Shown here one piece after another: positions 2,471 through 50,006 of a stretch of DNA of 63,392 nt; position 1 is the first letter of the stretch, and each line of letters begins with the position of its first letter. The stretch covers positions 1-63,392 of the forward strand of contig JAGCPA010000088.1 of the NCBI GenBank assembly GCA_017642445.1. The letters run 5' to 3'. The DNA comes from Spirochaetia bacterium (GTDB lineage: Bacteria; Spirochaetota; Spirochaetia; CADAEX01). Below the pieces are notes generated by a model. The model was given only the letters and a program-made list of their open reading frames with translations. It did no database searches and was not told the DNA's origin. The translations under genes and the position numbers were made by a program.

Positions 2471-2476
2471 TATATT
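2471..2476 (+). promoter_or_regulatory. Possible leaderless -10 of the epimerase gene
   Basis: TATATT ends six bases before the ATG at 2483. No good -35 is visible, and the gene lies within a run of coupled genes, so this may be chance. Confidence 0.35.
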
Positions 2477-16875: not shown

Positions 16876-18180
16876 TTAGAAAGTCTTCTTAAGGTATTCC
16901 TTAAGGGCTTCGGCAGTGTTCTCCACAACCACAGAGTGCTTCTCAAGCTTCAGGAGCCTCTCCAGGTTAGGCGGCAGAGCAGGGCGTGCACCGGTAGCCT
17001 CTTCCACAACCTCCAGGAACTTGCCCGGATGCGCGGTTGAGAGGGTGATGACAGCTGTATCCTTAGGCTGGTACTTTTCCATGTAGCGGCAGGATGCCAC
17101 ATATCCCACAGCGGTGTGCGGGTCTATGAACATCTTCTTCTCCGCATAGAAATCCTTGATAGCCTTCAGGGTATCCTCATTGGAGACCCACGCTCCCTTT
17201 ATCATCGCTCCCATCTTCTTGTAATCGTCGTTGAAAATGTATCTGAGCCGCTCGAAGTTGCTCGGGTCGCCCACATCCATTGCGTTGGAGTAGGTCTTGA
17301 AGCTTGGGTGAGGCTCGTATTTGCCCGACTCCAGGTAGAGCGGAACCTCGTTGTTCAGGTTTGTAGCTGCTATGAACTCCTTTACAGGCATTCCCCAGCA
17401 CCAGTCAAGCACGCCGGCAGTAAGGTTTCCGAAGTTTCCGCTTGGAACGCAGAATACTATGTTCTTGAACTTGGCCTTGAGCTGGTTGAAGGCGTACATA
17501 TAGTAGAAGGACTGCGGAAAGAGCCGTCCCAAGTTGATGGAGTTGGCTGATGTAAGCGGCAGATACTTCATGTCAGGGCTGGTGAAGATCTGCTTAACCA
17601 TCCGCTGACAGTCGTCGAATGATCCTTTTACCTCAAGGGCGCGGACATTCTTGACCAGTGTTGTCAGCTGTTTCTCCTGCAGAGGGCTTACACGGCCTGA
17701 TGGATAGAGGATGACTACATCTATGTTCTTCTTGTCAAAGAAGGCCTGTGCAACTGCGCTTCCGGTGTCGCCCGATGTTGCTGTCAGGATTATAGCCTTG
17801 CGGTTGTCGGCTTGGAGGAATTCCTCCATGGATGCTGCCAGGAAGCAGGCGCCGAAGTCTTTGAAAGCAGATGATGGGCCGTGGAACAGCTCCTCGATGA
17901 AGATGTTGTTGCCGGTGTCCACAATCTCGGGCTTGAAATAGAAGGCCCGGTTGCAGATCCGTGCTGCAGTCTCCCTGTCCATCTCGTCCTTCATGATGGC
18001 TGCAGTCAGCTCGATTGCAGACTCGTTGAATGGTGTATCGGCAGTCATGCTTGCATAAAGGGCTGAAAGATCCGGGGTGGAATCGGGTACGAAAAGGCCG
18101 CCCTCCGGGGAAAGACCCTGGAAAACAGCTTCCTTGAAAGTAACAACTCTATTTTTGTCTCTTGTGCTTATAAATTTCAT
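16876..18180 (-). CDS. thrC: Threonine synthase
   Basis: A 434-residue PLP enzyme that makes L-threonine from O-phosphohomoserine. The N terminus KFISTRDKNRVVTFKEAV is typical. The PLP lysine lies in SSAFKDFGA, and the phosphate-binding TSGDTGSAV is the classical motif. FCVPSGNFGN is also conserved. The start at 18180 is preferred over an ATG six codons upstream because family proteins begin MKxxSTR. TATCAT ends six bases before that ATG, suggesting a leaderless transcript. Length fits the long (fungal/E. coli-like) class. It is the only amino-acid biosynthesis enzyme in this part of the window. Confidence 0.95.
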   Translation of the reverse strand: MKFISTRDKNRVVTFKEAVFQGLSPEGGLFVPDSTPDLSALYASMTADTPFNESAIELTAAIMKDEMDRETAARICNRAFYFKPEIVDTGNNIFIEELFHGPSSAFKDFGACFLAASMEEFLQADNRKAIILTATSGDTGSAVAQAFFDKKNIDVVILYPSGRVSPLQEKQLTTLVKNVRALEVKGSFDDCQRMVKQIFTSPDMKYLPLTSANSINLGRLFPQSFYYMYAFNQLKAKFKNIVFCVPSGNFGNLTAGVLDWCWGMPVKEFIAATNLNNEVPLYLESGKYEPHPSFKTYSNAMDVGDPSNFERLRYIFNDDYKKMGAMIKGAWVSNEDTLKAIKDFYAEKKMFIDPHTAVGYVASCRYMEKYQPKDTAVITLSTAHPGKFLEVVEEATGARPALPPNLERLLKLEKHSVVVENTAEALKEYLKKTF

Positions 18181-18186
18181 ATCTTT

Positions 18187-18192
18187 ATGATA
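18187..18192 (-). promoter_or_regulatory. Likely -10 of thrC
   Basis: TATCAT on the minus strand ends six bases before the ATG at 18180; no Shine-Dalgarno sequence. The -35 is not convincing. Confidence 0.45.
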
Positions 18193-22491: not shown

Positions 22492-24090
22492 TCACTTAAA
22501 CCTTATTCTTCCCTGACCCTTGGGGTCTGAGTATTCGGAGGGGATTTTACCGATCTTCTGTATATATTCAGCCAGAGCCTCGCAATCAGTACCTGTCTCC
22601 ACAGGCAGAAGCTTGGCACCGGCAAAGATATGACCGCTACCATTGTTCTTGATGAAATAATCAAGACCTACCACTATGTATTTTTTATCCAGATTCAGAG
22701 GAACTCCGTTCACCTTGACATCGCTTATCCTGTAGGGACCTGCCACTCCTGTGAAGAACCCGGTGATGTCCACCTGTACAGATGATGGTATAGAGGTGTC
22801 GAGAGTATAAGTCACCCCGGAGGCATGGAGGAATCCTCCCGAATTTGCAGGCAGATTCCGGACTCCGTACTCAAGCTCATCCAGAATAGTCTTCCCGCTG
22901 ACTTCCACCACGCAGAGCTGGTTTCCAAAGGGGAGCACCGAAAGGGCATCCCTGTAGCGTATTGTTCCAGGCTCTATGTTAGTGCGGAGCCCTCCGCCGT
23001 TTATAAGGCCGATGTCGGCATTGTAGATTGCCCTGAAGGCATCTGAGACAAAATCGGCCAGGTTGGATTCCTTGGAGCGGACAATCCAGCTGCCGTCCCT
23101 GTTCTTTGCCAAGAGTGGGAAATCGACAGTTCCCAGAGGGGTCTCAAGCTTTTCTTCGTGCTGCTTCCTGATATCGGCAATAAGGTTTGTTATCTTCTCA
23201 TCAGGGTCCACGTCCAGGGCGTCCAAAAGCTCCACAGTGATCTCTCCGGAAGGATGAATAGTCGCTTTTCCCAGGTGGGCAAGCTTGGTTCCTGTCTGGG
23301 TTATGGTCACCTCTTTTCCTGTCTTATCCTTTACAATGAGGGCCGGGATTACGGAATGAGTGTGCCCGTCAATCAGCAGATCGGCTCCCTGGATATTGGC
23401 AATAAGTGCTTTGGAGGTCCATTCGTCCCGATTATTCATTTTCTCGCCCAGATGAGAGAGAATGATGACATAATCGGCACCTTCCTTGCGGGCCTGGTCT
23501 ATGGCTGTCTGCACATCCTGGTACATGGTCTGGCTTATGGCATCCCAATCAAAGCTGTAAGTCTGTTTTTCGTCAGCGTCATGGAATGTGGCCACAGAAA
23601 CCTGGATCAGCGTCTCCGGTGTGGTTACGCTCACATAAGCAACTTTCTTCTTGCCGTATTTGATGATCTTATAAGGAGGGAACACCAGATTTCCGGTCTT
23701 GAGGTCTCTGAAGTTGGAGGCGATATAGCCGCAGTCAAGCATCTTGGAGAGCTTGGTGAACTGCTTCATTCCGTAGTCGAACTCGTGGTTGCCGGGAATA
23801 GCCACATCATAGCCGGTCATGTTCAAGATTCTGATGATATCCTCGCCCTTCGAGAGTGCTCCGATTATATCCCCTTGGACAGCGTCGCCCGCATCAACCA
23901 GAGTGACATAGGGATTCTGCTCCAGAAGCTGCTTTTTATAGGAGGCAAGCTTGGCGTATCCGATATTATCGTCCACACCGCAGTGAACATCGTTTGTGTA
24001 GAGGATGACAATGTCCTGATCCTGGACTTTTCCAGCGCAGGAGATAAATAGCAGGGAGACTGCAAGCAGTATGGCAAGGAGTTTTTTCAT
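22492..24090 (-). CDS. 5'-nucleotidase/UshA-like metallophosphatase lipoprotein
   Basis: A 532-residue protein with a lipoprotein signal (lipobox FISC, Cys18). The N-terminal calcineurin-like domain has [21 protein letters not shown] and GNHEFDYG, the metal ligands of UshA/NadN-type enzymes. The C-terminal substrate domain has [12 protein letters not shown], also typical. It would strip phosphate from nucleotides in the periplasm to feed nucleoside uptake; the pyrimidine phosphorylase at 34286 could use the products. TAGACT ends six bases before the ATG, pointing to a leaderless mRNA. It lies nine bases upstream of the copper ATPase on the same strand. Confidence 0.9.
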
Positions 24091-24096
24091 GCTTAT

Positions 24097-24102
24097 AGTC
24101 TA
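24097..24102 (-). promoter_or_regulatory. Possible -10 of the 5'-nucleotidase gene
   Basis: TAGACT on the minus strand ends six bases before the ATG at 24090. The -35 is weak (TGGTAA at 17 bases). Confidence 0.35.
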
Positions 24103-24135: not shown

Positions 24136-24852
24136 CTACATCTCTTTCCATGTGTACTCGGCTTCGGTGTCGAAGTGGAAGATGCAGTCGTGCTCTGGGG
24201 AGTCCACGATGATCGCTCTGTTGCCGTTCTTGGTGAGGAAGCAGGGGTTGGGGCGGATTTCGGTGTGGCCTACCACCTGGCCTTTGTACTTGCCGTCAGC
24301 GGTCCACATGTCAGAAAGAAGACTCCGTGGACGCACCCATGTGGGCGGGCTGTAGATGCTGTCGCCGTATGAGTTGGTGCAGTAGGGGCCGAAGTCGAAA
24401 ATCTTATAACGTCCCGCGTGGAAGATGCCGTTGATTTCGGCTAACACATCGGTTGCTTTATCAATTCCATAGATCGAGAGCCATGTCTTGGTGATACCAG
24501 CGTGGGAGAATAACCAACCGTCAAACTCCGTGACCATGTCAAAAAGCTCGATATTATAGTTGATGATGGACCATATCTCTGTGGCGTAATCCCACTGATG
24601 ATCTGAGACATAAGGATCCGAGATATATGAGAGGTCGTGGTTTCCCATCAGCACTGTCACCTTGTCGGGATACTTCTTCTTGGCTTCGAAGATTGCCTGC
24701 AGGTTCTCCATCTGGTCGGGCTGCCTGTTGTCCCAGGAATCCACATAGTCCCCCAGGAAGACAATGGCATCGGTCTTTGCCAGCTCTTCGGGTTCAAAAG
24801 CTTTCTCCCAGTGGTGAGTGCCGTGTACATCGGGAATCACAGTGATCTTCAT
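24136..24852 (-). CDS. Calcineurin-like phosphoesterase
   Basis: About 238 residues. The metal site motifs are clear: IPDVHG, FLGDYVDSWD and MGNHD, followed by FSHAGIT. This is the layout of the PPP/Ap4A-hydrolase-like metallophosphoesterases. No signal peptide, so cytoplasmic. The start at 24852 is chosen because the beta strand KITVIPDVHG follows at once and because a perfect TATAAT ends six bases before it; an ATG twelve codons upstream is in frame. Substrate unknown (dinucleoside polyphosphate or phosphoprotein are possible). Confidence 0.8.
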   Translation of the reverse strand: MKITVIPDVHGTHHWEKAFEPEELAKTDAIVFLGDYVDSWDNRQPDQMENLQAIFEAKKKYPDKVTVLMGNHDLSYISDPYVSDHQWDYATEIWSIINYNIELFDMVTEFDGWLFSHAGITKTWLSIYGIDKATDVLAEINGIFHAGRYKIFDFGPYCTNSYGDSIYSPPTWVRPRSLLSDMWTADGKYKGQVVGHTEIRPNPCFLTKNGNRAIIVDSPEHDCIFHFDTEAEYTWKEM

Positions 24853-24858
24853 GAGCAA

Positions 24859-24864
24859 ATTATA
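24859..24864 (-). promoter_or_regulatory. -10 of the phosphoesterase gene
   Basis: A perfect TATAAT on the minus strand ends six bases before the ATG at 24852; no ribosome site and no good -35. Confidence 0.5.
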
Positions 24865-24877
24865 GCATGATTTCTGC

Positions 24878-24906
24878 TTGTCGGACATAAGTTTCCAGTT
24901 TATACT
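24878..24906 (+). promoter_or_regulatory. Promoter of the CDF transporter gene
   Basis: TTGTCG (24878-24883), 17 bases, TATACT (24901-24906), then six bases to the ATG. It is divergent from the phosphoesterase promoter. Confidence 0.6.
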
Positions 24907-24912
24907 TCTCTC

Positions 24913-26040
24913 ATGGCAGATATTTCAAAAGATATTGAGAACCGCGACAGAGTGATTGTCCGGACAAGTGTTATCGGCATCGTGGCTAATATTTTTCTTG
25001 CGGCGTTCAAGGCTGTGGTGGGGATTGTCTCAAACTCCATCGCTGTTGTGCTGGATGCGGTGAACAACCTGTCAGATGCCCTCTCTTCGGTCATCACAAT
25101 CGTAGGAACCAAGCTGGCAGGAAAGCTCCCTGATAAGAAGCACCCTCTGGGCTACGGCCGTATCGAGTATCTGAGTGCAATGATCGTGTCTGCTATCGTG
25201 CTCTATGCCGGTATCACCGCACTGGTGGAGTCTATCAAGAAAATCATCCACCCCGAGAAGGCCGATTATTCCGCTGTTGCCCTGATCATCATTTCTATGG
25301 CTGTTGTGGTAAAGCTGCTGCTGGGCCGCTATGTGAAGGCGAAAGGGAAGGCTGTCAATTCCAGCGCTCTGGTTGCCTCTGGTTCCGATGCCCTGTTTGA
25401 CGCGATCCTCTCGGCTTCGGTCCTTGCCTCCGCCGTATTCTTCCTCCTCACTGGAATTTCTCTTGAGGACTATGTGGGTGTCCTGATCTCCATAATGATT
25501 CTGAAGGCCGGCTACGAGATGATCACCGAGACTTTGGATGACATCTTGGGAAAGAGGGCTGACAAGGAGACCAGTATCCAGATAAAGAAGCTGCTGGTGG
25601 AAGAGCCCGAGGTGAGGGGTGCCTTTGACCTGATAATCAATGACTATGGACCTAACAAAAATTATGCCTCTGTTCATCTTGAGCTGCCTGACACCATGAC
25701 TGTGGACCAGGTTGATGAGCTGACCCGCCGTGTGCAGGTGAAGGTGTACAGGGAGACCGGAGTCATCCTGACTGGAGTAGGCGTTTATTCCTTCAATACT
25801 AAGGATGATGAGGCGGCGAAGATCCGCAATACTATATTTGAGGCTGTCATGTCCCACGACTGGGCCCTGCAGTTCCACGGCTTCTATGTGGACACCAAGG
25901 CCAAGACCATGCGGTTTGATGTGGTGATGAGCTTTGATATAACCCCGGATGAGGGGCTTAAGATTCTCTATGACGAGGTTGGCAAGCTCTACCCCGATTA
26001 TTCCGTCCAGATTGTTGCAGATGTGGATGTGTCAGATTGA
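24913..26040 (+). CDS. Cation diffusion facilitator transporter
   Basis: A 375-residue member of the CDF family. The first 215 residues hold about six membrane helices. The metal site signature is SNSIAVVLDAVNNLSDALSS in helix two, with ASGSDALFDA (the paired aspartate) in helix five. The cytoplasmic tail contains a ferredoxin-like dimer domain and a second 75-residue domain, making it longer than the usual 300. It would export Zn, Fe, Mn or similar in exchange for protons. A TATACT -10 ends six bases before the ATG with TTGTCG seventeen bases up, so a leaderless start is likely. It is divergent from the phosphoesterase gene. Confidence 0.88.
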   Translation: MADISKDIENRDRVIVRTSVIGIVANIFLAAFKAVVGIVSNSIAVVLDAVNNLSDALSSVITIVGTKLAGKLPDKKHPLGYGRIEYLSAMIVSAIVLYAGITALVESIKKIIHPEKADYSAVALIIISMAVVVKLLLGRYVKAKGKAVNSSALVASGSDALFDAILSASVLASAVFFLLTGISLEDYVGVLISIMILKAGYEMITETLDDILGKRADKETSIQIKKLLVEEPEVRGAFDLIINDYGPNKNYASVHLELPDTMTVDQVDELTRRVQVKVYRETGVILTGVGVYSFNTKDDEAAKIRNTIFEAVMSHDWALQFHGFYVDTKAKTMRFDVVMSFDITPDEGLKILYDEVGKLYPDYSVQIVADVDVSD

Positions 26041-34250: not shown

Positions 34251-34279
34251 TTGTTTCAACTCCTGTTTTCAATTAAAAT
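34251..34279 (+). promoter_or_regulatory. Possible promoter of the pyrimidine phosphorylase gene
   Basis: TTGTTT (34251-34256), 17 bases, TAAAAT (34274-34279), then six bases to the ATG; no ribosome site. Confidence 0.5.
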
Positions 34280-34285
34280 GTCTCT

Positions 34286-35593
34286 ATGGTTTTCACTGAT
34301 ATTATAGAAAAGAAAAAGAACGGCCTGAAGCTTAATCAGGAAGAGCTCAATTTTTTCATCGACGGCTATGTCAAGGGAATTATTCCCGACTACCAGGTGT
34401 CGGCTCTCCTTATGGCTATTGTCCTTAAGGGGATGGACGAGGAGGAGACTGTTGCCCTGACCTCTGCAATGATTGACTCGGGGCCGCGGATGGATCTTTC
34501 CGGTATCAAGGGCTTCAAGGTGGACAAGCATTCCACCGGCGGCGTAGGGGATGACACCACACTGCTGGTTGCCCCTCTGGTTGCGGCCTGCGGATGCAAG
34601 GTGGCCAAGATGTCGGGCCGGGGTCTGGGCTTTACAGGCGGCACCCTGGACAAGCTTGAGTCTATTCCGGGCTTCAATGTTTTCTTCGATAATGAAACTT
34701 TTATAAAGAATGTCTCCAAGGTGGGGCTTTCCATAATAGGCCAGACCCAGGACCTGGTTCCGGCCGACAAGAAGCTCTATGCCCTGCGTGATGTGACCGG
34801 TACTGTGCAGAGCCTGCCCCTCATTGCCTCCAGCATAATGAGCAAGAAGATTGCCATGGGAACCGATGCTGTTGTCCTGGATGTCAAGACAGGAAACGGA
34901 GCCCTTCTTCCAGCCTTAAAGGATTCTATAAAATTGGCCGATATAATGGTAAGAATCGGTAATGCAAAAGGGCTTAAGACTGCAGCTGTGGTGACAGACA
35001 TGAACCAGCCTTTGGGCAACTGCATCGGAAATGCCCTGTCGGTGGAAGAGGCTATCCATGTTCTCAAGGATAACATCGAGTGCGACATCAAGACAGTATC
35101 CCTGACATTGGCTTCCAAGATGCTTATTCTGGGCGGAATCTGCGAGTCGGACAGCGAGGCCATGATGATGCTGGAGGAGAAGATTGCCTCTGGCCAGGCA
35201 CTGGTAAAGCTGGCCCAGATGATCAAGAACCAGGGTGGCGATCCCAATGTGGTGGACGACACCTCTATTCTGCCCCATGCAAAGGAGCAGATTTCTGTAT
35301 GCGCCGATTCCTCTGGATACGTGTCAGAGATAATCACCCACGAGGTGGGCTCTGCCGCATCCCTTTTAGGGGCAGGCCGTATGACCAAGGAGGATGTGAT
35401 TGATCCTGCTGTGGGCATAGTCATTAAGAAACGGCTTGGCGATTATGTGAAGAAGGGCGAGGAGCTTGCCATCTTCCATGTGAACGATAAAAAGAATTTT
35501 GAGGAAGCGGTGGCCAGATTCAAGAAAGCTTATACAATCTCCAAGGTTCAGCCAGACGAGCTTCCCCTTATCTATACTGTGATTGAGGAATAG
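34286..35593 (+). CDS. Pyrimidine-nucleoside (thymidine) phosphorylase
   Basis: A 435-residue enzyme of the thymidine/pyrimidine phosphorylase family. The phosphate- and potassium-binding KHSTGGVGD lies near residue 80, and the family signature SGRGLGFTGGTLDKLES follows. It splits uridine or thymidine with phosphate, giving free base and (deoxy)ribose-1-phosphate in salvage. Length is normal. No ribosome site is visible; TAAAAT ends six bases before the ATG with TTGTTT seventeen bases up, so the mRNA may be leaderless. Whether it is deoA-like or pdp-like cannot be told. Confidence 0.93.
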   Translation: MVFTDIIEKKKNGLKLNQEELNFFIDGYVKGIIPDYQVSALLMAIVLKGMDEEETVALTSAMIDSGPRMDLSGIKGFKVDKHSTGGVGDDTTLLVAPLVAACGCKVAKMSGRGLGFTGGTLDKLESIPGFNVFFDNETFIKNVSKVGLSIIGQTQDLVPADKKLYALRDVTGTVQSLPLIASSIMSKKIAMGTDAVVLDVKTGNGALLPALKDSIKLADIMVRIGNAKGLKTAAVVTDMNQPLGNCIGNALSVEEAIHVLKDNIECDIKTVSLTLASKMLILGGICESDSEAMMMLEEKIASGQALVKLAQMIKNQGGDPNVVDDTSILPHAKEQISVCADSSGYVSEIITHEVGSAASLLGAGRMTKEDVIDPAVGIVIKKRLGDYVKKGEELAIFHVNDKKNFEEAVARFKKAYTISKVQPDELPLIYTVIEE

Positions 35594-38376: not shown

Positions 38377-39579
38377 ATGAACCTTGTAGTGGATCTTCAT
38401 TCCCATTCACCTTATGCCGGTGCCTCAGGAAAATCAGACTTCAAGCGTCTTTCCTATGTGATGGGAATCAAAGGAATAAATATCTACGGCAGCGGCGACA
38501 TCCTGCTCAAGAAGTGGGAGGATGAGCTTTGCGCCGAGTTCCCGTTTGACAGGCAGAAATCGATGTGGGTCATAAAAGAGGGTCAGTATCTGATGCCTCA
38601 GACCGAGATTATTGTCACATTGCCTTATGCCCAGAATCCAGCCAAGCGGAAGCTGTTTCATGTTGTGATACTCTTCGGCGATATGGAGAGTGTCTATACA
38701 GTCCGCACCATGATGGAGAAGAAGGGCTCCAAGCTGGGAATCGGCCGCCCCTTTGTAAAGTTTGAAAGCTATCCGGAGATGCAGGATTTTTTTATAGAGA
38801 TGAAGAGAAAGGCCAGGGTTGCCATAGTTCCGGCCCATGTTGTGACCCCGGAGGGAATCCTGGGCGGTAAGAATCCGGTTGACTCTGTGACCGAGATATG
38901 GGGAGAAGCCTCTTCCTGCATCGATGCCCTTGAGACAGGCTTAAGCGCCGACCCGGAGATGCTGGCTGCAGTGGCCGGCGGCCTGGATGTTCCTTTGATT
39001 TCATCAAGCGATGCCCACTCAGCTGCCTTCAACCGGCTGGGCCGGGAGTTTACCCTTCTGGATATGCAGGAGGAGTCTGCTTCCGGTGTCCTGGCTGCAC
39101 TGGCTGCCAAGGCTGTGCTTAAGACTGCGGAGTTCCCTCCCTTCGAGGGGCGCTACTACCTGACAGGACACCGCCTTGACAGACCGGGCCATAATGGGCA
39201 GGAGGTCTGGTATCTGGATAATCCGCCGGCGGTCTGCCCCCTGTGCGGCAAGCCCTTTGTGGAAGGGGTTAGGCAGCGGATTAAGCGTATCTCCAGCGGG
39301 CTTGCCGTACGGAAGCAGGCGTTTGTCTACCAGATGCCGCTTATCGAGATTATTGCCGCAAGCTTAGGCTGCGGCGCCGGCTCCAAGAAGGCATCTGACC
39401 TTTATATAAAGATTGCGGGCCAGGCCGGGAACGAGAGCAGCCTCTGGTTCCAGGATGCAGATGTGGCTCTGCAGGGTGTTCCCGATGCAGTTATAGAGGG
39501 AATCAGGGCTGTCAAGGAGAACAGATTTAAGATAAAATATGGATTTGACGGGCAGTACGGCCAGATATTGCTGGCTTGA
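38377..39579 (+). CDS. Endonuclease Q-like PHP-domain protein
   Basis: A 400-residue protein whose N terminus DLHSHSPYAGASGK, PAHVVTP and SSSDAHSAAF give the metal-binding histidines and aspartates of the PHP superfamily. The segment CPLCGKPFVEGV is a zinc-ribbon half typical of endonuclease Q, which cuts DNA 5' to deaminated bases (hypoxanthine, uracil) and abasic sites. EndoQ is known from Thermococcales and a few bacteria. The match rests on motif order and length. It lies in a row of cell-wall and repair genes, 32 bases before murA. Confidence 0.75.
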   Translation: MNLVVDLHSHSPYAGASGKSDFKRLSYVMGIKGINIYGSGDILLKKWEDELCAEFPFDRQKSMWVIKEGQYLMPQTEIIVTLPYAQNPAKRKLFHVVILFGDMESVYTVRTMMEKKGSKLGIGRPFVKFESYPEMQDFFIEMKRKARVAIVPAHVVTPEGILGGKNPVDSVTEIWGEASSCIDALETGLSADPEMLAAVAGGLDVPLISSSDAHSAAFNRLGREFTLLDMQEESASGVLAALAAKAVLKTAEFPPFEGRYYLTGHRLDRPGHNGQEVWYLDNPPAVCPLCGKPFVEGVRQRIKRISSGLAVRKQAFVYQMPLIEIIAASLGCGAGSKKASDLYIKIAGQAGNESSLWFQDADVALQGVPDAVIEGIRAVKENRFKIKYGFDGQYGQILLA

Positions 39580-39610
39580 CAGCCTGTTTTTACCATTGTA
39601 AGGTGGAAAT

Positions 39611-40891
39611 ATGGATAAATATGTTATCGAGGGTTCTTATCCGCTGAAAGGCAAGATCAAGGCCAGTGGAAACAAGAATGCGGCTCTTCCATGCCTTGCC
39701 GCGGCGCTTCTTACCGACGAGGAAGTCATCTTAGAGAACATTCCCGAGATTGAGGATGTATCTGTAATGGTGAGGATTCTCAAGCAGCTGGGCTCCAAGG
39801 TGACCTGGCTGGGCACAAACAAGTATTCCATAAAGACAACTGATATAAAGAAAGCCGAGATTCCGGCTGCCGAGGCCAAGGCTGTAAGAGCCTCCATCCT
39901 TTTTGCAGGGCCTCTTCTGGCCAGAACCGGCAGCGTTACATTCCCACCTCCGGGCGGCGATGTAATAGGCCACAGAAGGCTTGATACCCACTTCCTGGCA
40001 TTCACCGAGCTGGGTGCCCGGGTCTCTGCCGACGGTGTATACAAAGTTACTGCCAACAAGCTGGTGGGTGTGGATCTGTTCCTGGACGAGGCATCTGTAA
40101 CTGCTACCGAGAACGCTATTATGACTGCGGTTCTGGCCGAGGGAAATACTGTTATCCAGAATGCGGCATCCGAGCCCCATGTGCAGGATCTGTGCAGCAT
40201 GCTGGTATCCATGGGTGCTAAAATCGATGGAATCGGCTCCAACATCCTGCGGATAAAAGGGGTCTCCAAGCTCCACGGCACACAGTTCCGGATAGGCTCT
40301 GACTTCATGGAGGTCGGCTCCTACATAGGTCTTGCGGCTGTAACCCACAGCAAGCTGGAGATAATCGATGCAGAGCCCAAGAACCTGCGTATGGCGAAAA
40401 TTGCATTCGGCAAACTTGGAATTAGCTGGGAGACCAGCGGCAACTCAATCCTTATCCGGCCACGGCAGGAGCTGCGGGTAAAGCCTGATATGGGAGACCA
40501 GATCCCATCCATAGACGACGCTCCATGGCCAGGATTCCCGCCTGACCTGACCAGTATTGTCACTGTAGTGGCAACCCAGGTGAACGGCACAGTCCTGATT
40601 CACGAGAAGATGTTCGAATCCAGGATGTTCTTTGTCGATAAGCTTATAGAGATGGGGGCAAAGATTGTTCTCTGCGACCCTCACCGGGCTGTGGTGAGCG
40701 GTCCTGCTTCCCTGAAGGGCTCCAACATGGTTTCTCCTGATGTCCGGGCTGGTATGGCTATGGTTATTGCAGCTCTGTGCGCAGAGGGCAAGAGCACTAT
40801 AAGCAACATCTACCAGATAGAGCGGGGCTACGAGAACCTGGCTGCAAAGCTTAAGAGTCTGGGTGCCAAAATAGAGCGGATCTCCGACTGA
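39611..40891 (+). CDS. murA: UDP-N-acetylglucosamine 1-carboxyvinyltransferase
   Basis: A 426-residue EPT-family enzyme that adds enolpyruvate to UDP-GlcNAc, the first committed step of peptidoglycan synthesis. SGNKNAALPCLAAALL near the start is the substrate-binding segment. The active-site loop reads PPGGDVIGHRRLD: the usual catalytic Cys is Asp117. That change is known to keep activity and confer fosfomycin resistance in Mycobacterium and Borrelia. AAGGTGGAA precedes the ATG. The gene ends one base before the convergent helicase gene. Confidence 0.96.
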   Translation: MDKYVIEGSYPLKGKIKASGNKNAALPCLAAALLTDEEVILENIPEIEDVSVMVRILKQLGSKVTWLGTNKYSIKTTDIKKAEIPAAEAKAVRASILFAGPLLARTGSVTFPPPGGDVIGHRRLDTHFLAFTELGARVSADGVYKVTANKLVGVDLFLDEASVTATENAIMTAVLAEGNTVIQNAASEPHVQDLCSMLVSMGAKIDGIGSNILRIKGVSKLHGTQFRIGSDFMEVGSYIGLAAVTHSKLEIIDAEPKNLRMAKIAFGKLGISWETSGNSILIRPRQELRVKPDMGDQIPSIDDAPWPGFPPDLTSIVTVVATQVNGTVLIHEKMFESRMFFVDKLIEMGAKIVLCDPHRAVVSGPASLKGSNMVSPDVRAGMAMVIAALCAEGKSTISNIYQIERGYENLAAKLKSLGAKIERISD

Positions 40892-42559
40892 TCAGCGGCT
40901 CTCTATAAGATATCTGTAACCCTGTTCTGTAAGAAACTTCTGTCTGTTTGCAGAGAATTCCTCCTCCACAGTGAACCTTGATGTAAGGGTGTAGAATGTG
41001 GAGTTCCTGTCCTTCGGCCGCAGTATCCGGCCTAACCGCTGCGCCTCCTCCTGCCTTGAGCCGAAGCTTCCCGATATCTGTATTGCCATGGATGCATCCG
41101 GCAGGTCTATGGCAAAGTTTGCCACCTTGGATACAATTATGACCCTCTCCTCACCGCGGCGGAACCTGTTGTAGATCTCCTCCCTGTTCTTGTTCGGGGT
41201 CTGTCCTGTGATTATAGGGACATCCAGCAGCTTCTTGACCTCTTTGAGCTGGGAGAGGTACTGCCCTATGATAAGGATAAAGTCGTCGGGATGGTTGTCT
41301 ATGAGCTCCTTGATGATCGGGAGCTTGCGTGGATTCTCCGAGGCAAGCCGGAATTTCTCCCTCTTTCCTGCGATAGAATATGGAACTTTAAGGTCCTCGG
41401 GCAGCTCAACCCGGATCTCGTGGCACGATGCATCGGCAATCCAACCTTTTGCCTGCAGGTCTTTCCATGGGCTGTCGTACTTTTTAGGGCCTACCAGAGA
41501 GAAAAGATCCTTTTCCCTTCCATCCTCACGGATAAGTGTGGCAGTAAGGCCGACCCGGCTTATAGCCTGGATCTCGGCAGTGATCCTGAACACAGGGGCA
41601 GGAAGCAGGTGGACCTCATCATAGATGATGAGTCCCCATTTGTTCTTCTTGAAAATCTCGAAGTGGGGGAAGTGCTCTTTTTTGTCAGGCCGCCATGTAA
41701 GTATCTGGTAGGTTGCCACAGTGATAGGCTTTATCTCCTTCTTCTCTCCGCTGTACTCTCCGATATCCTCCGGCTTCGCAAAGGACTTGTCCAGAAGCTC
41801 CTCCATCCACTGGTGCACGGCGGCGATGTTGGTGGTCAGGATCAAAGTCTGGGTCTGCATAAGCTCCATGATCTTCATGCCCACCATAGTCTTTCCTGAG
41901 CCGCAGGCCATGACCACAGTGCCGTAGCCGTTTCCCGGGGCACCCTTGCCGTAGAATGCGTTTGCAGCCTCTATCTGGTAATCTCTGATAACCAGCTTCT
42001 TGCCGCTGGAAGTGGTGTTCCTGAGTCTGAACTCCATCGGTGCGCCGGCTCTGAGCGGTATGTTGTCTTTGACAGGATAGCCCAGGTTGATAAGCTCCTG
42101 CTTCACAGTGCCCCGGTCCAAGGTTCTTACCAGGAATGCATTATCCTCTGGTGCAGGCATGAGCAGCTTCTCAAGCTTTTTCACTGCAAGGAGGGATTTG
42201 TACAGGATTATGTTCTCCACCTTGAGCATCAGGGTGTCCGGGTTGCCGGTCTCCACCAGCACCAGTTTGCCGAAAAGTGATCCGCTGTCCTCGATCTGGA
42301 ACAGGACATTCTCGGGTATATCAAACCGCGACCATTTCTTAAGCCGCTTTATCACCTGATCTGTGGGGATTCCTGCCGATGCGGCGTTCCAGAGGGAGAT
42401 GGGAGAAATTGAATAGGTGTGTATGTGCTCCGGCGATTTCTCAAGCTCTGCAAAGACAGAGATATCGTCCCGTGCCGACTCGAAATTAGGAGAGTGGACA
42501 TCCAGCAGTATTGTGCCGTCGCTCTGGACTATGATCGGTTTTTCTTCTGCCAAGGCCAT
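40892..42559 (-). CDS. XPB/ERCC3-type superfamily 2 DNA helicase
   Basis: A 555-residue helicase. After an N-terminal 220 residues, motif I is CGSGKT, motif II IYDEVH, and the XPB-specific RED motif is in LTATLIREDGRE. Motif VI is QRLGRILRPK. T. pallidum is known to carry such a RAD25/XPB homologue. In archaea and eukaryotes XPB unwinds DNA at repair sites and promoters; the bacterial role is poorly known. Promoter: TTGACA-17-TACAAT, with the -10 ending six bases before the ATG, so the transcript would be leaderless. Confidence 0.93.
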   Translation of the reverse strand: MALAEEKPIIVQSDGTILLDVHSPNFESARDDISVFAELEKSPEHIHTYSISPISLWNAASAGIPTDQVIKRLKKWSRFDIPENVLFQIEDSGSLFGKLVLVETGNPDTLMLKVENIILYKSLLAVKKLEKLLMPAPEDNAFLVRTLDRGTVKQELINLGYPVKDNIPLRAGAPMEFRLRNTTSSGKKLVIRDYQIEAANAFYGKGAPGNGYGTVVMACGSGKTMVGMKIMELMQTQTLILTTNIAAVHQWMEELLDKSFAKPEDIGEYSGEKKEIKPITVATYQILTWRPDKKEHFPHFEIFKKNKWGLIIYDEVHLLPAPVFRITAEIQAISRVGLTATLIREDGREKDLFSLVGPKKYDSPWKDLQAKGWIADASCHEIRVELPEDLKVPYSIAGKREKFRLASENPRKLPIIKELIDNHPDDFILIIGQYLSQLKEVKKLLDVPIITGQTPNKNREEIYNRFRRGEERVIIVSKVANFAIDLPDASMAIQISGSFGSRQEEAQRLGRILRPKDRNSTFYTLTSRFTVEEEFSANRQKFLTEQGYRYLIESR

Positions 42560-42565
42560 TCAAAA

Positions 42566-42594
42566 ATTGTAAGTTTAAAAAAACCATATGTCAA
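42566..42594 (-). promoter_or_regulatory. Promoter of the XPB helicase gene
   Basis: On the minus strand TTGACA (42594-42589), 17 bases, TACAAT (42571-42566), then six bases to the ATG at 42559. This is the clearest leaderless promoter in the window. Confidence 0.75.
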
Positions 42595-42611
42595 CTGGTA
42601 AAGCAATATGT

Positions 42612-42617
42612 TATAGT
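42612..42617 (+). promoter_or_regulatory. Likely -10 of the pseudouridine synthase gene
   Basis: TATAGT ends six bases before the ATG at 42624; no ribosome site. The best -35 is weak. Confidence 0.5.
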
Positions 42618-42623
42618 AAAAGT

Positions 42624-43397
42624 ATGGGAAAGAACAATGAACAGGTGAGGCTTGACCGGCTTCTGGCAAACAGCGGATATGGTTCCCGGAGCGATGTGAG
42701 ATCTCTGGTGAGATCGAGGCTTGTGACTGTGAACGGAGTGCCGGTTGAGCGTTTTGATATCCACATAAACATAGCTGAAGATAAAGTTGTTGTCGACGGC
42801 CGGCCTCTTAAAGTTTCTGTCCATGTGTACTACATGATGAACAAGCCATCGGGCTATGTCTGCTCATCCAAAGGAGGGGCTCACCCTACAGTATTTGACC
42901 TTATGGAGGATGCTGACAGGGGGAAGAGGCTGGGCGGCGAGCTGGGCATTGTAGGGCGCCTTGATCTGGACACCGAGGGGCTTCTGATACTTACCACAGA
43001 CGGCAATCTGAACCACAGGCTGACATCCCCTAAGCATCATGTTCCAAGGACCTATTTTGTGCAGCTTGAGAACGCACTCTCTGAGGCTGAGCAGAAACAG
43101 TATTCCGAGGCTGTGGCGGCAGGGGTGGAGATGCCGCCCGAAGATCACGAGCCAGGAGCAGTATGCCGGGGCGGAGAACTTGAGTGGGAGGGGAAAGATA
43201 CCTGCCGCCTTACCATATACGAAGGGCTTTATCATGAGGTCAAGCGGATATTCGCAGCACTCGGCAACAGGGTCATTTTCCTTAAACGGATCAGGATGAA
43301 TCGTCTGACATTGGATCCTGCTCTTGCACCGGGAGAATACAGGGAGCTTTCGGAGCAGGAACTTTCGGCTCTAACCTTGACAAACGCTATTCTATGA
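42624..43397 (+). CDS. RsuA/RluB-family pseudouridine synthase
   Basis: About 257 residues from the ATG at 42624. An N-terminal S4 RNA-binding domain (RLDRLLANSGYGSRSD) is followed by the catalytic domain with GIVGRLDLDTEGLLILTTDG, whose second Asp is the nucleophile. It isomerises uridine in 16S or 23S rRNA (family knowledge; the target base cannot be read). TATAGT ends six bases before the ATG and no ribosome site is present, suggesting a leaderless message. It overlaps the LolA-like gene by four bases. Confidence 0.88.
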   Translation: MGKNNEQVRLDRLLANSGYGSRSDVRSLVRSRLVTVNGVPVERFDIHINIAEDKVVVDGRPLKVSVHVYYMMNKPSGYVCSSKGGAHPTVFDLMEDADRGKRLGGELGIVGRLDLDTEGLLILTTDGNLNHRLTSPKHHVPRTYFVQLENALSEAEQKQYSEAVAAGVEMPPEDHEPGAVCRGGELEWEGKDTCRLTIYEGLYHEVKRIFAALGNRVIFLKRIRMNRLTLDPALAPGEYRELSEQELSALTLTNAIL

Positions 43398-48580: not shown

Positions 48581-48796
48581 TCAGACCTGATGATAAGCGT
48601 AGAGCAGGAAAGTAAGGCCCAGGAGAAGGCTCATTCTTCCTAACAGGCGGATATGTCTCACATGCTTTGCATGGAATTCATCCCACCATTCGGGATTCTT
48701 AGGCCGGTGCGGAAAAGCCTTGAACTCCATGAGGAAGCCGAGCATAGATATAAAAATAAGAATACTGCCGAGTATCAGTTTGAAAATTGGACTCAT
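48581..48796 (-). CDS. Small two-helix membrane protein
   Basis: A 71-residue protein of unknown function. Two hydrophobic segments (about residues 5-25 and 52-68) flank a basic, His-rich loop (WWDEFHAKHVRHIRLLGR). A TATAGT hexamer ends six bases before the ATG, with TTGAAG seventeen bases up, so the short frame looks like a real leaderless gene rather than chance. It lies convergent to the helicase gene and 17 bases below the M23 peptidase gene. Confidence 0.55.
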   Translation of the reverse strand: MSPIFKLILGSILIFISMLGFLMEFKAFPHRPKNPEWWDEFHAKHVRHIRLLGRMSLLLGLTFLLYAYHQV

Positions 48797-48802
48797 AGAA
48801 AC

Positions 48803-48831
48803 ACTATACCTGTTTAATCCTTTTTCTTCAA
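48803..48831 (-). promoter_or_regulatory. Promoter of the two-helix membrane protein gene
   Basis: On the minus strand TTGAAG (48831-48826), 17 bases, TATAGT (48808-48803), then six bases to the ATG at 48796. It lies within the end of the M23 peptidase gene. Confidence 0.55.
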
Positions 48832-49971
48832 GTTCTCAAAAAGCTCATCCACCTGGGCTTTCCGTTTTGCAAACCGCTCAAGCTCTGCTTTTGTCAGGTT
48901 CCGCTCAGGGGGAGACTTGACCGAGGCAGGGTTTATCTTAACGTCATTGAATATGACTTCGTAGTGCAGATGAGGACCGGTGGACATTCCGGTGGTGCCT
49001 ATATAGCCGATCACCTGTCCCTGCTTTACCCGCACCCCTTTCCTGATCCCTTTTCCATAGGCGTTCATGTGGCCGTACAAAGTCTTGTACCCGTTGCTGT
49101 GCCGCAGTATTATGCAGTTTCCATAGATATCGAACCAGCCGGCCAGCTCCACGGTGCCGCTTCCAGAGGCCAGGATAGGGGTGTTGATAGGGGCGGCGAA
49201 ATCGAGTCCTTTGTGGAAGGATTCGTAGCCATATACCGGGTTTGTCCTCTTGCCGTAGGAGGAGGATATCCTTGCGTTGGCCACAGGGGTCTTGAGCAGG
49301 GTTTTCCGCACGCTCTTACCCTCGGCGTTGTAATAGTCGTATTCATTTGAGTCGGTGACAAATCCGTACAGGTTGATATCTGCAAAGTTGGTCTTGAGCG
49401 ATGCAAAGGCGATGGGTCCATGCTTTGCAACAGTGCCGTCGTCCTTCATAAAATCGTAGTAGAGCACCTTGAATGTGTCTCCCTTGCGGATATCGCGCTG
49501 GAAATCCACGTCAAAAGAGAAGATGCGGAAAAGCTCCATGATCTTGGAACCAGCAACTCCGGCAGCCGCCATATCGTTGTAGAAGCTGCTCTCTATCGTC
49601 CCCTCTGCAGCTATCGGCACCATCTTCAGCGAGAGCTTCTCGGGGAAGGATTCGTAGGCATATCCGTTGTATTTTACAACAATATCCTCGTCAAAGTCGG
49701 AAGAAAGGCGCATCTCCATAAGCCGCACCTCGGGCTCGCTCTCCACTTTTATCAGTATTTTCTGGTTGGGGTATATGTGCTTGAGGTTGTAATGGGCCGA
49801 GAGGGCTCTGGTGGCCTCCACTATCTGCTGGCCGGGAATATCCTCGTTCTTAAGCAGAGAAGAGAGGTTTCCTCCCTTTGGGACTGTCAGTTCTTTTTCT
49901 TCGGCTTGGAGTAAAATTGCCGGGAACAACAAGGTAAGGATGATGATGCATTTTGCCAGTACATGCCTCAT
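48814..49971 (-). CDS. M23-family (LytM/OapA-like) metallopeptidase
   Basis: A 385-residue protein with signal peptide LLFPAILLQAEE. Residues 30-110 resemble a LysM-like or OapA region (ELTVPKGGNLSSLL; YPNQKILIKV). The C-terminal peptidase domain has FHKGLDFAAP and HLHYEVIFN, giving the zinc ligands His, Asp and His. Such enzymes cut peptidoglycan cross-links in the periplasm, or serve as inactive activators; here the ligands are present. The promoter (TTGTCA-17-TAATAT) ends six bases before the ATG, predicting a leaderless mRNA and sharing its -35 with tRNA-Ser. Confidence 0.9.
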   Translation of the reverse strand: MRHVLAKCIIILTLLFPAILLQAEEKELTVPKGGNLSSLLKNEDIPGQQIVEATRALSAHYNLKHIYPNQKILIKVESEPEVRLMEMRLSSDFDEDIVVKYNGYAYESFPEKLSLKMVPIAAEGTIESSFYNDMAAAGVAGSKIMELFRIFSFDVDFQRDIRKGDTFKVLYYDFMKDDGTVAKHGPIAFASLKTNFADINLYGFVTDSNEYDYYNAEGKSVRKTLLKTPVANARISSSYGKRTNPVYGYESFHKGLDFAAPINTPILASGSGTVELAGWFDIYGNCIILRHSNGYKTLYGHMNAYGKGIRKGVRVKQGQVIGYIGTTGMSTGPHLHYEVIFNDVKINPASVKSPPERNLTKAELERFAKRKAQVDELFENLKKKD

Positions 49972-49977
49972 TCTTAT

Positions 49978-50006
49978 ATATTACCATAATCTTATATGCT
50001 TGACAA
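49978..50006 (-). promoter_or_regulatory. Promoter of the M23 peptidase gene
   Basis: On the minus strand TTGTCA (50006-50001), 17 bases, TAATAT (49983-49978), then six bases to the ATG at 49971. Confidence 0.65.

What the first reader, a model, noticed from the sequence alone, without database searches (positions are those of the whole stretch)
24852..24913. Many genes have a -10 ending exactly six bases before the start codon: probable leaderless mRNAs
The same geometry (TAnnnT, six bases, ATG) is seen upstream of 2483, 18180, 24090, 24852, 24913, 34286, 42559, 42624, 48796 and 49971. At 42559 (TTGACA-17-TACAAT), 24913, 48796 and 49971 a fair -35 sits 17 bases further up. These genes lack a Shine-Dalgarno, while operon-internal genes have one. 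Bacterial RNA polymerase starts about seven bases after the -10, so transcription would begin at the A of the ATG. Leaderless mRNA at this frequency would be notable in a spirochaete.
Basis: partly seen in the sequence, partly recalled or inferred. Interest (0 to 1): 0.75.

Follow-up and report, generated by a model that had tools for sequence, protein, structure and literature searches.

The report
Leaderless gene starts in rumen spirochaetes
In this uncultured gut spirochaete roughly one in six of the genes that start a transcript has its promoter so close to the start codon that the messenger RNA should begin at the start codon itself, a known but uncommon arrangement that turns out to be widespread in this class of bacteria.

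Summary
All ten sites show TAnnnT, exactly six bases, then ATG, and it is not chance. In a 643-kb sample of the same genome, with starts called without looking upstream, first-in-operon genes lacking a Shine-Dalgarno have TAnnnT at spacing 6 in 30 of 155 cases; 4.9 are expected (P 1e-14; 21 of 134 without the window). A -35 "TTG" lies exactly 17 bp further up in 17 of 30, against 0-1 at other spacings. E. coli gives 0 of 144. In same-genus species 30 of 32 orthologues keep the geometry, while the six bases between -10 and ATG diverge freely. The base before ATG is usually a pyrimidine, as expected if transcription starts at its A.

Best reading: ordinary sigma-70 promoters producing leaderless mRNAs. 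Genome-wide this is about 13-20% of first-in-operon genes; the window is about three-fold richer than the rest. The pattern holds in 101 of 118 Spirochaetia genomes.

It is not unprecedented. Zheng 2011 predicted leaderless genes in 6 of 18 spirochaete genomes, and dRNA-seq found about 440 leaderless mRNAs in Leptospira. It is a known kind, extended here to uncultured Spirochaetia. No 5' ends were measured.

The parts
24859..24864 (-). -10 box TATAAT (preceded by TGC, extended -10), 6 nt before ATG at 24852 (metallophosphoesterase)
   Evidence: kept in 3 of 3 same-genus orthologues
24901..24906 (+). -10 box TATACT, 6 nt before ATG at 24913 (CDF cation transporter)
   Evidence: kept in 3 of 3 orthologues, one with 17+3 nt inserted in the intergenic region
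24878..24883 (+). -35 box TTGTCG of 24913, 17 bp before its -10
42566..42571 (-). -10 box TACAAT, 6 nt before ATG at 42559 (XPB-type helicase)
   Evidence: also in horse-gut relative L012
42589..42594 (-). -35 box TTGACA of 42559; the same 6 bp occupy the -35 position of the divergent gene 42624
42612..42617 (+). -10 box TATAGT (preceded by TGT, extended -10), 6 nt before ATG at 42624 (RsuA-type pseudouridine synthase)
49978..49983 (-). -10 box TAATAT, 6 nt before ATG at 49971 (M23 peptidase)
50001..50006 (-). -35 box TTGTCA of 49971
48803..48808 (-). -10 box TATAGT, 6 nt before ATG at 48796 (71-aa conserved ORF); promoter reaches into the 3' end of the upstream gene
   Evidence: kept in 4 of 4 orthologues with diverged discriminators
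48826..48831 (-). -35 box TTGAAG of 48796
34274..34279 (+). -10 box TAAAAT, 6 nt before ATG at 34286 (pyrimidine-nucleoside phosphorylase)
   Evidence: kept in 4 of 6 orthologues, replaced by TAAATG stop-start overlap in L254 and L256
34251..34256 (+). -35 box TTGTTT of 34286
18187..18192 (-). -10 box TATCAT, 6 nt before ATG at 18180 (threonine synthase)
24097..24102 (-). -10 box TAGACT, 6 nt before ATG at 24090 (5'-nucleotidase family)
2471..2476 (+). -10-like TATATT, 6 nt before ATG at 2483 (NAD-dependent epimerase); operon-internal, no -35, the weakest case
39576..39581 (+). -35 box TTGACA of 39611

Best explanation
These are housekeeping (sigma-70-type) promoters abutting the start codon. 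RNA polymerase bound to the -35 (TTGnnn, 17 bp) and/or an extended TGn -10 box melts TAnnnT and begins at the purine seven bases after the box, which is the A of ATG. The mRNA therefore has no 5' leader and no Shine-Dalgarno, and translation starts by direct recognition of the 5'-terminal AUG (by analogy with leaderless mRNAs elsewhere, by 70S or 30S-IF2-initiator tRNA). Other genes of the genome, operon-internal ones above all, use Shine-Dalgarno sites. Shown here from sequence: promoter geometry, its statistics, its conservation and its rarity together with an SD. Inferred: the exact transcript 5' end and the mode of ribosome binding.
For: Peak at spacing 6 in first-in-operon genes without an SD, 30/155 against 4.9 (21/134 against 4.1 outside the window), with -35 TTG at spacing 17 in 17/30 against 0-1 elsewhere. 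Offset peak without gene calling. Same-genus G002 17/89 against 2.2; class member G016 10/64 against 1.8. E. coli 0/144. TGn extended -10 in 9/30 against 9/125. Pyrimidine at -1 in 51/63 against 149/274, P 1e-4. 30 of 32 orthologues keep the geometry. Substitution rates: -35 8%, -10 6%, discriminator 28%. Mixture model with generic promoter weights: 0.158 of first-in-operon genes at d=6 against 0.013 per other position. The full promoter pattern is enriched in 101 of 118 Spirochaetia genomes.
Against: No 5' ends have been mapped in this organism, and a leader of 1-3 nt cannot be told from none by sequence. The scarcity of SD in these genes is partly mechanical, because the -10 box occupies the SD position. 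Half of the 30 cases have no good -35 and 9 have neither -35 nor TGn; about 5 of the 30 are expected by chance. The same-family genome G007 shows no peak in its gene sample.
Confidence: 0.92

Rival explanations
1. Near-leaderless: the promoters are real, but transcription begins 1-4 nt upstream (or a few nt downstream) of the A, leaving a tiny leader; ribosomes still cannot use an SD.
For: Start-site choice of RNA polymerase is flexible by 1-3 nt (general knowledge). Some excess of TAnnnT also lies at spacings 4 and 7 (11 and 10 against 4.9).
Against: The peak is sharp at 6, and the base at -1 is T/C in 26 of 30 own-genome cases, the usual partner of a +1 purine.
Confidence: 0.2
2. Chance plus reader selection: AT-rich upstream regions give many TAnnnT, and the reader picked those at six bases.
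For: TAnnnT at any one spacing occurs in about 3% of no-SD first-in-operon genes, and the window is enriched over the rest of the genome, as selection would produce. 2483 and 14595 may be such chance cases.
Against: The peak holds outside the window (P 3e-9), with a -35 at exactly 17 bp, orthologue conservation and many other genomes.
Confidence: 0.02
3. Mis-annotated starts: the ATG after the -10 is not the translation start, and a downstream start codon with a normal leader is used.
For: Not excluded for each gene; RsuA models align from codon 8 of the 42624 ORF.
Against: MurA, the epimerase and the pyrimidine-nucleoside phosphorylase models align from residues 1-3. The ATG is kept in all 32 orthologues. 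Codon 8 of 42624 is GTA, not a start, in L009. A chance ATG would not peak at one offset.
Confidence: 0.04

Closest known systems
TA-led leaderless genes of bacteria (Zheng et al. 2011, PMC3160421)
   Same: TANNNT at about -12 to -7 upstream of the start, read as a Pribnow box making leaderless mRNA. Spirochaetes are listed: 6 of 18 genomes, 1.8-6.9% of genes.
   Different: That survey covered sequenced isolates of 2011. Here it is shown for an uncultured rumen genus and 101 of 118 Spirochaetia genomes, with -35 spacing and orthologue conservation.
Leptospira interrogans leaderless transcripts (dRNA-seq, PMC5243855)
   Same: Same phylum; 430-450 genes with a primary start site within 10 nt of the start codon, 184 exactly at it.
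   Different: Another class; measured, not predicted; no TTG-17-TAnnnT promoter consensus was found there.
-10 box adjacent to ORF in Deinococcus-Thermus (PMC12340547)
   Same: -10 box a few bp upstream of the ORF drives leaderless mRNA; a -35 17 bp upstream of it raises expression.
   Different: About 30% of ORFs there, -10 alone often sufficient; here a smaller share and a clear -35 at 17 bp in half of the cases.
Mycobacterium leaderless transcriptome (PMC3898074, PMC4633059)
   Same: Large set of genes with the start site at the start codon beside SD-led genes.
   Different: Actinobacteria, high GC, GTG starts common (own knowledge); here nearly all are ATG (28 of 30).

Membership tests
Leaderless (TA-led) bacterial genes | -10 box TANNNT ending about six bases before the start codon, peaked there and not elsewhere | tested here: met
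Leaderless (TA-led) bacterial genes | No Shine-Dalgarno between promoter and start | tested here: met
   In first-in-operon genes, TA at spacing 6 in 25 of 129 no-SD genes and 1 of 91 SD genes; partly mechanical
Leaderless (TA-led) bacterial genes | Mapped transcript 5' end at the start codon | not testable with these tools
   No RNA data for this organism
Leaderless (TA-led) bacterial genes | Translation of the leaderless mRNA from its 5' AUG | not testable with these tools
   Needs ribosome profiling or reporter assays
Sigma-70 promoter | -35 TTGACA-like hexamer 17 bp (16-18) upstream of the -10 | tested here: met
   TTG at exactly 17 bp in 17 of 30, 0-1 at any other spacing from 8 to 29; TGn extended -10 in 9 of 30
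Sigma-70 promoter | Start at a purine preceded by a pyrimidine, about seven bases after the -10 | tested here: met
   -1 pyrimidine in 26 of 30 own-genome cases; pooled P 1e-4; sequence evidence only

The most novel reading that the evidence does not exclude
Leaderless initiation from a start-codon-abutting sigma-70 promoter is a standing feature of the whole class Spirochaetia. It is strongest per Mb in this rumen genus and lost in one family of small genomes. It allows very compact bidirectional promoters in which two ATGs lie only 53-64 bp apart and share -35 bases, and single genes can switch between leaderless and operon-coupled starts among sister species.
Probability: 0.7. Interest if true: 0.5.

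Novelty: new member of a known kind. Interest (0 to 1): 0.42.

Why it matters
Gene finders that demand a Shine-Dalgarno will mis-place starts in these genomes; the distance peak gives a direct rule for start calls and promoter maps of uncultured spirochaetes. It adds a whole class to the list where SD-led and leaderless initiation coexist. It offers closely related species in which the same gene (pyrimidine-nucleoside phosphorylase) is leaderless in some and operon-coupled in others, a natural test of what the choice costs.

Tried and rejected
Chance and reader selection: rejected by out-of-window, relative and E. coli tests. SD/TA exclusivity as independent proof: only partly used, because the two motifs compete for the same bases. 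16S anti-SD tail of this genome: not obtainable, since no 16S gene is in the assembly or in same-genus assemblies; the class member G017 has ...GGATCACCTCCTTT. XPB gene across 76 named spirochaete loci: the spacing-6 box is kept only in the nearest relatives (L009-L012) and sporadically elsewhere, with TA signals at other spacings, so leaderlessness of a given gene is not deeply conserved. The Borrelia 5'-end mapping paper is not held.

Full report
What was claimed.

Observation. All ten sites are as described. The window lies in a 1.70-Mb, 103-contig, 98.7% complete genome of an uncultured gut spirochaete. Its nearest named relatives are the gut MAGs RUG13243, RGIG3334 (goat) and RGIG9769 (yak). 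Genes are threonine synthase (18180), a 5'-nucleotidase-family protein (24090), a metallophosphoesterase (24852), a CDF transporter (24913), pyrimidine-nucleoside phosphorylase (34286), an XPB-type helicase (42559), an RsuA-type pseudouridine synthase (42624), a 71-aa conserved ORF (48796), an M23 peptidase (49971) and an epimerase (2483). A further clear case is murA at 39611.

Is it more than chance? I sampled 643 kb of the genome (window plus the first 20 kb of contigs 1-60; contigs under 3 kb read as N) and called genes from codon usage, with starts chosen without any upstream signal. On E. coli this caller found 40 of 42 genes on one stretch, 34 with the annotated start. Among 155 first-in-operon (or mid-gap) genes without an SD, TAnnnT occurs at spacing 6 in 30, against 4.88 on average at spacings 9-40 (P 1.5e-14). 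Without the window it is 21 of 134 against 4.12 (P 3e-9). In those 30 genes the -35 TTG sits exactly 17 bp before the -10 in 17, and in 0-1 at any other spacing from 8 to 29; outside the window it is 12 of 21. TGn extended -10 elements are enriched too (9/30 against 9/125). Independent of gene calls, strong promoter-like sites are followed by an ATG that opens an ORF at offset 6 in 15 cases against 1.6 per other offset. E. coli shows none at 6 (0 of 144).

Where does transcription start? The last base before ATG is T or C in 26 of 30 own-genome cases. Pooled over four genomes it is 51/63 against 149/274 in other no-SD first-in-operon genes (P 1e-4). ATG rather than GTG/TTG is weakly favoured (59/63 against 228/274, P 0.047). 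Both fit a pyrimidine-purine initiator whose +1 is the A of ATG.

Conservation. In same-genus species about 70-98% identical over the regions compared, plus the close named relatives L009-L012, 30 of 32 orthologues of eight window genes keep TAnnnT-6-ATG. Base changes against this genome are 8% in the -35, 6% in the -10 (0 of 87 at T, A and T among those that keep it), 20% in the spacer, 28% in the six-base discriminator and 26% further up. So the length of the discriminator is kept while its bases are not. In L222 the 24852/24913 intergenic region has 17 and 3 extra bases and both geometries survive. The two exceptions, 34286 in L254 and L256, have lost the intergenic gap: the gene now starts inside TAAATG with the upstream stop, so initiation there is operon-coupled.

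How common? A mixture model with generic promoter weights puts a promoter at spacing 6 before 15.8% of first-in-operon genes (19.8% for 5-8); 12.7% and 16.7% without the window; 39% and 45% in the window; 0% in E. coli; 12% in same-genus G002; 7% in G016; 2% in G007 and G017. With first-in-operon and mid-gap genes being 251 of 546, this is roughly 6-9% of all genes (my arithmetic). SD motifs are present in the genome: strong SD in 36% of internal and 25% of first-in-operon genes, against 5% at a control position.

How widespread? The pattern TTGA-N19-TAnnnT-N6-ATG was counted in 118 Spirochaetia genomes and compared with the mean count per spacing from 10 to 29. The median ratio is 3.1, and 101 of 118 exceed 2. 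The own genus has the highest excess per Mb. One family of small genomes (f19, 1.0-1.8 Mb) shows none, ratio 0.92. That size would fit Borreliaceae, but I did not verify the name; if it is Borreliaceae, it sits uneasily with a remark in PMC10618245 that leaderless transcripts are frequent in Borrelia burgdorferi. G007, of the same family as the window's genome, has a whole-genome excess (31 against 12.6 per position), though its gene-level sample showed no peak. Counts were copied by hand from the tool output.

Mechanism. Most likely sigma-70 polymerase starts at the A of AUG and the ribosome takes the 5'-terminal AUG directly. The promoter part is well supported by sequence. The exact 5' end and the mode of translation are inferred.

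What is known. Zheng et al. (PMC3160421) defined this very signal and listed 6 of 18 spirochaete genomes with 1.8-6.9% leaderless genes. Leptospira dRNA-seq found 430-450 start sites within 10 nt of the start codon, 184 at it (PMC5243855). Deinococcus-Thermus and mycobacteria have more (PMC12340547; PMC3898074). This is therefore a known kind in a new genus, with the added result that it spans the class.

Noticed in passing
window 42559-42624 and 24852-24913; L112:745-799: Compact bidirectional leaderless promoters: divergent ATGs 53-64 bp apart. At 42559/42624 both -35 positions are the same 6 bp (42589-42594). In the own-genome sample 10 of 16 divergent starts with 50-70 bp gaps have the spacing-6 box, against 13 of 86 at wider gaps.
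   Followed up: partly
window 34286; L254, L256: Pyrimidine-nucleoside phosphorylase has a leaderless promoter in five genomes of the genus but a stop-start overlap (TAAATG) with the upstream gene in two sister species.
   Followed up: partly
genomes of family f19 (G028, G050, G066, G080, G091, G101, G111): The only multi-genome family of the class without any excess at spacing 6 (ratio 0.92).
   Followed up: no
genome G243 (family f40): Highest raw count of the spacing-6 promoter pattern seen (140 in 3.1 Mb); a 92-kb sample gave 6 of 29 no-SD first-in-operon genes.
   Followed up: partly
L099:4747-6048 and L099:3796-4638: rpoN (sigma-54) itself has a TATAAT-6-ATG start, divergent from another spacing-6 gene that starts with GTG.
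   Followed up: no
window 48581-48796: Conserved 71-aa ORF with hydrophobic stretches and no Pfam or NCBIfam match, kept in four same-genus species behind the M23 peptidase gene with its own promoter.
   Followed up: no
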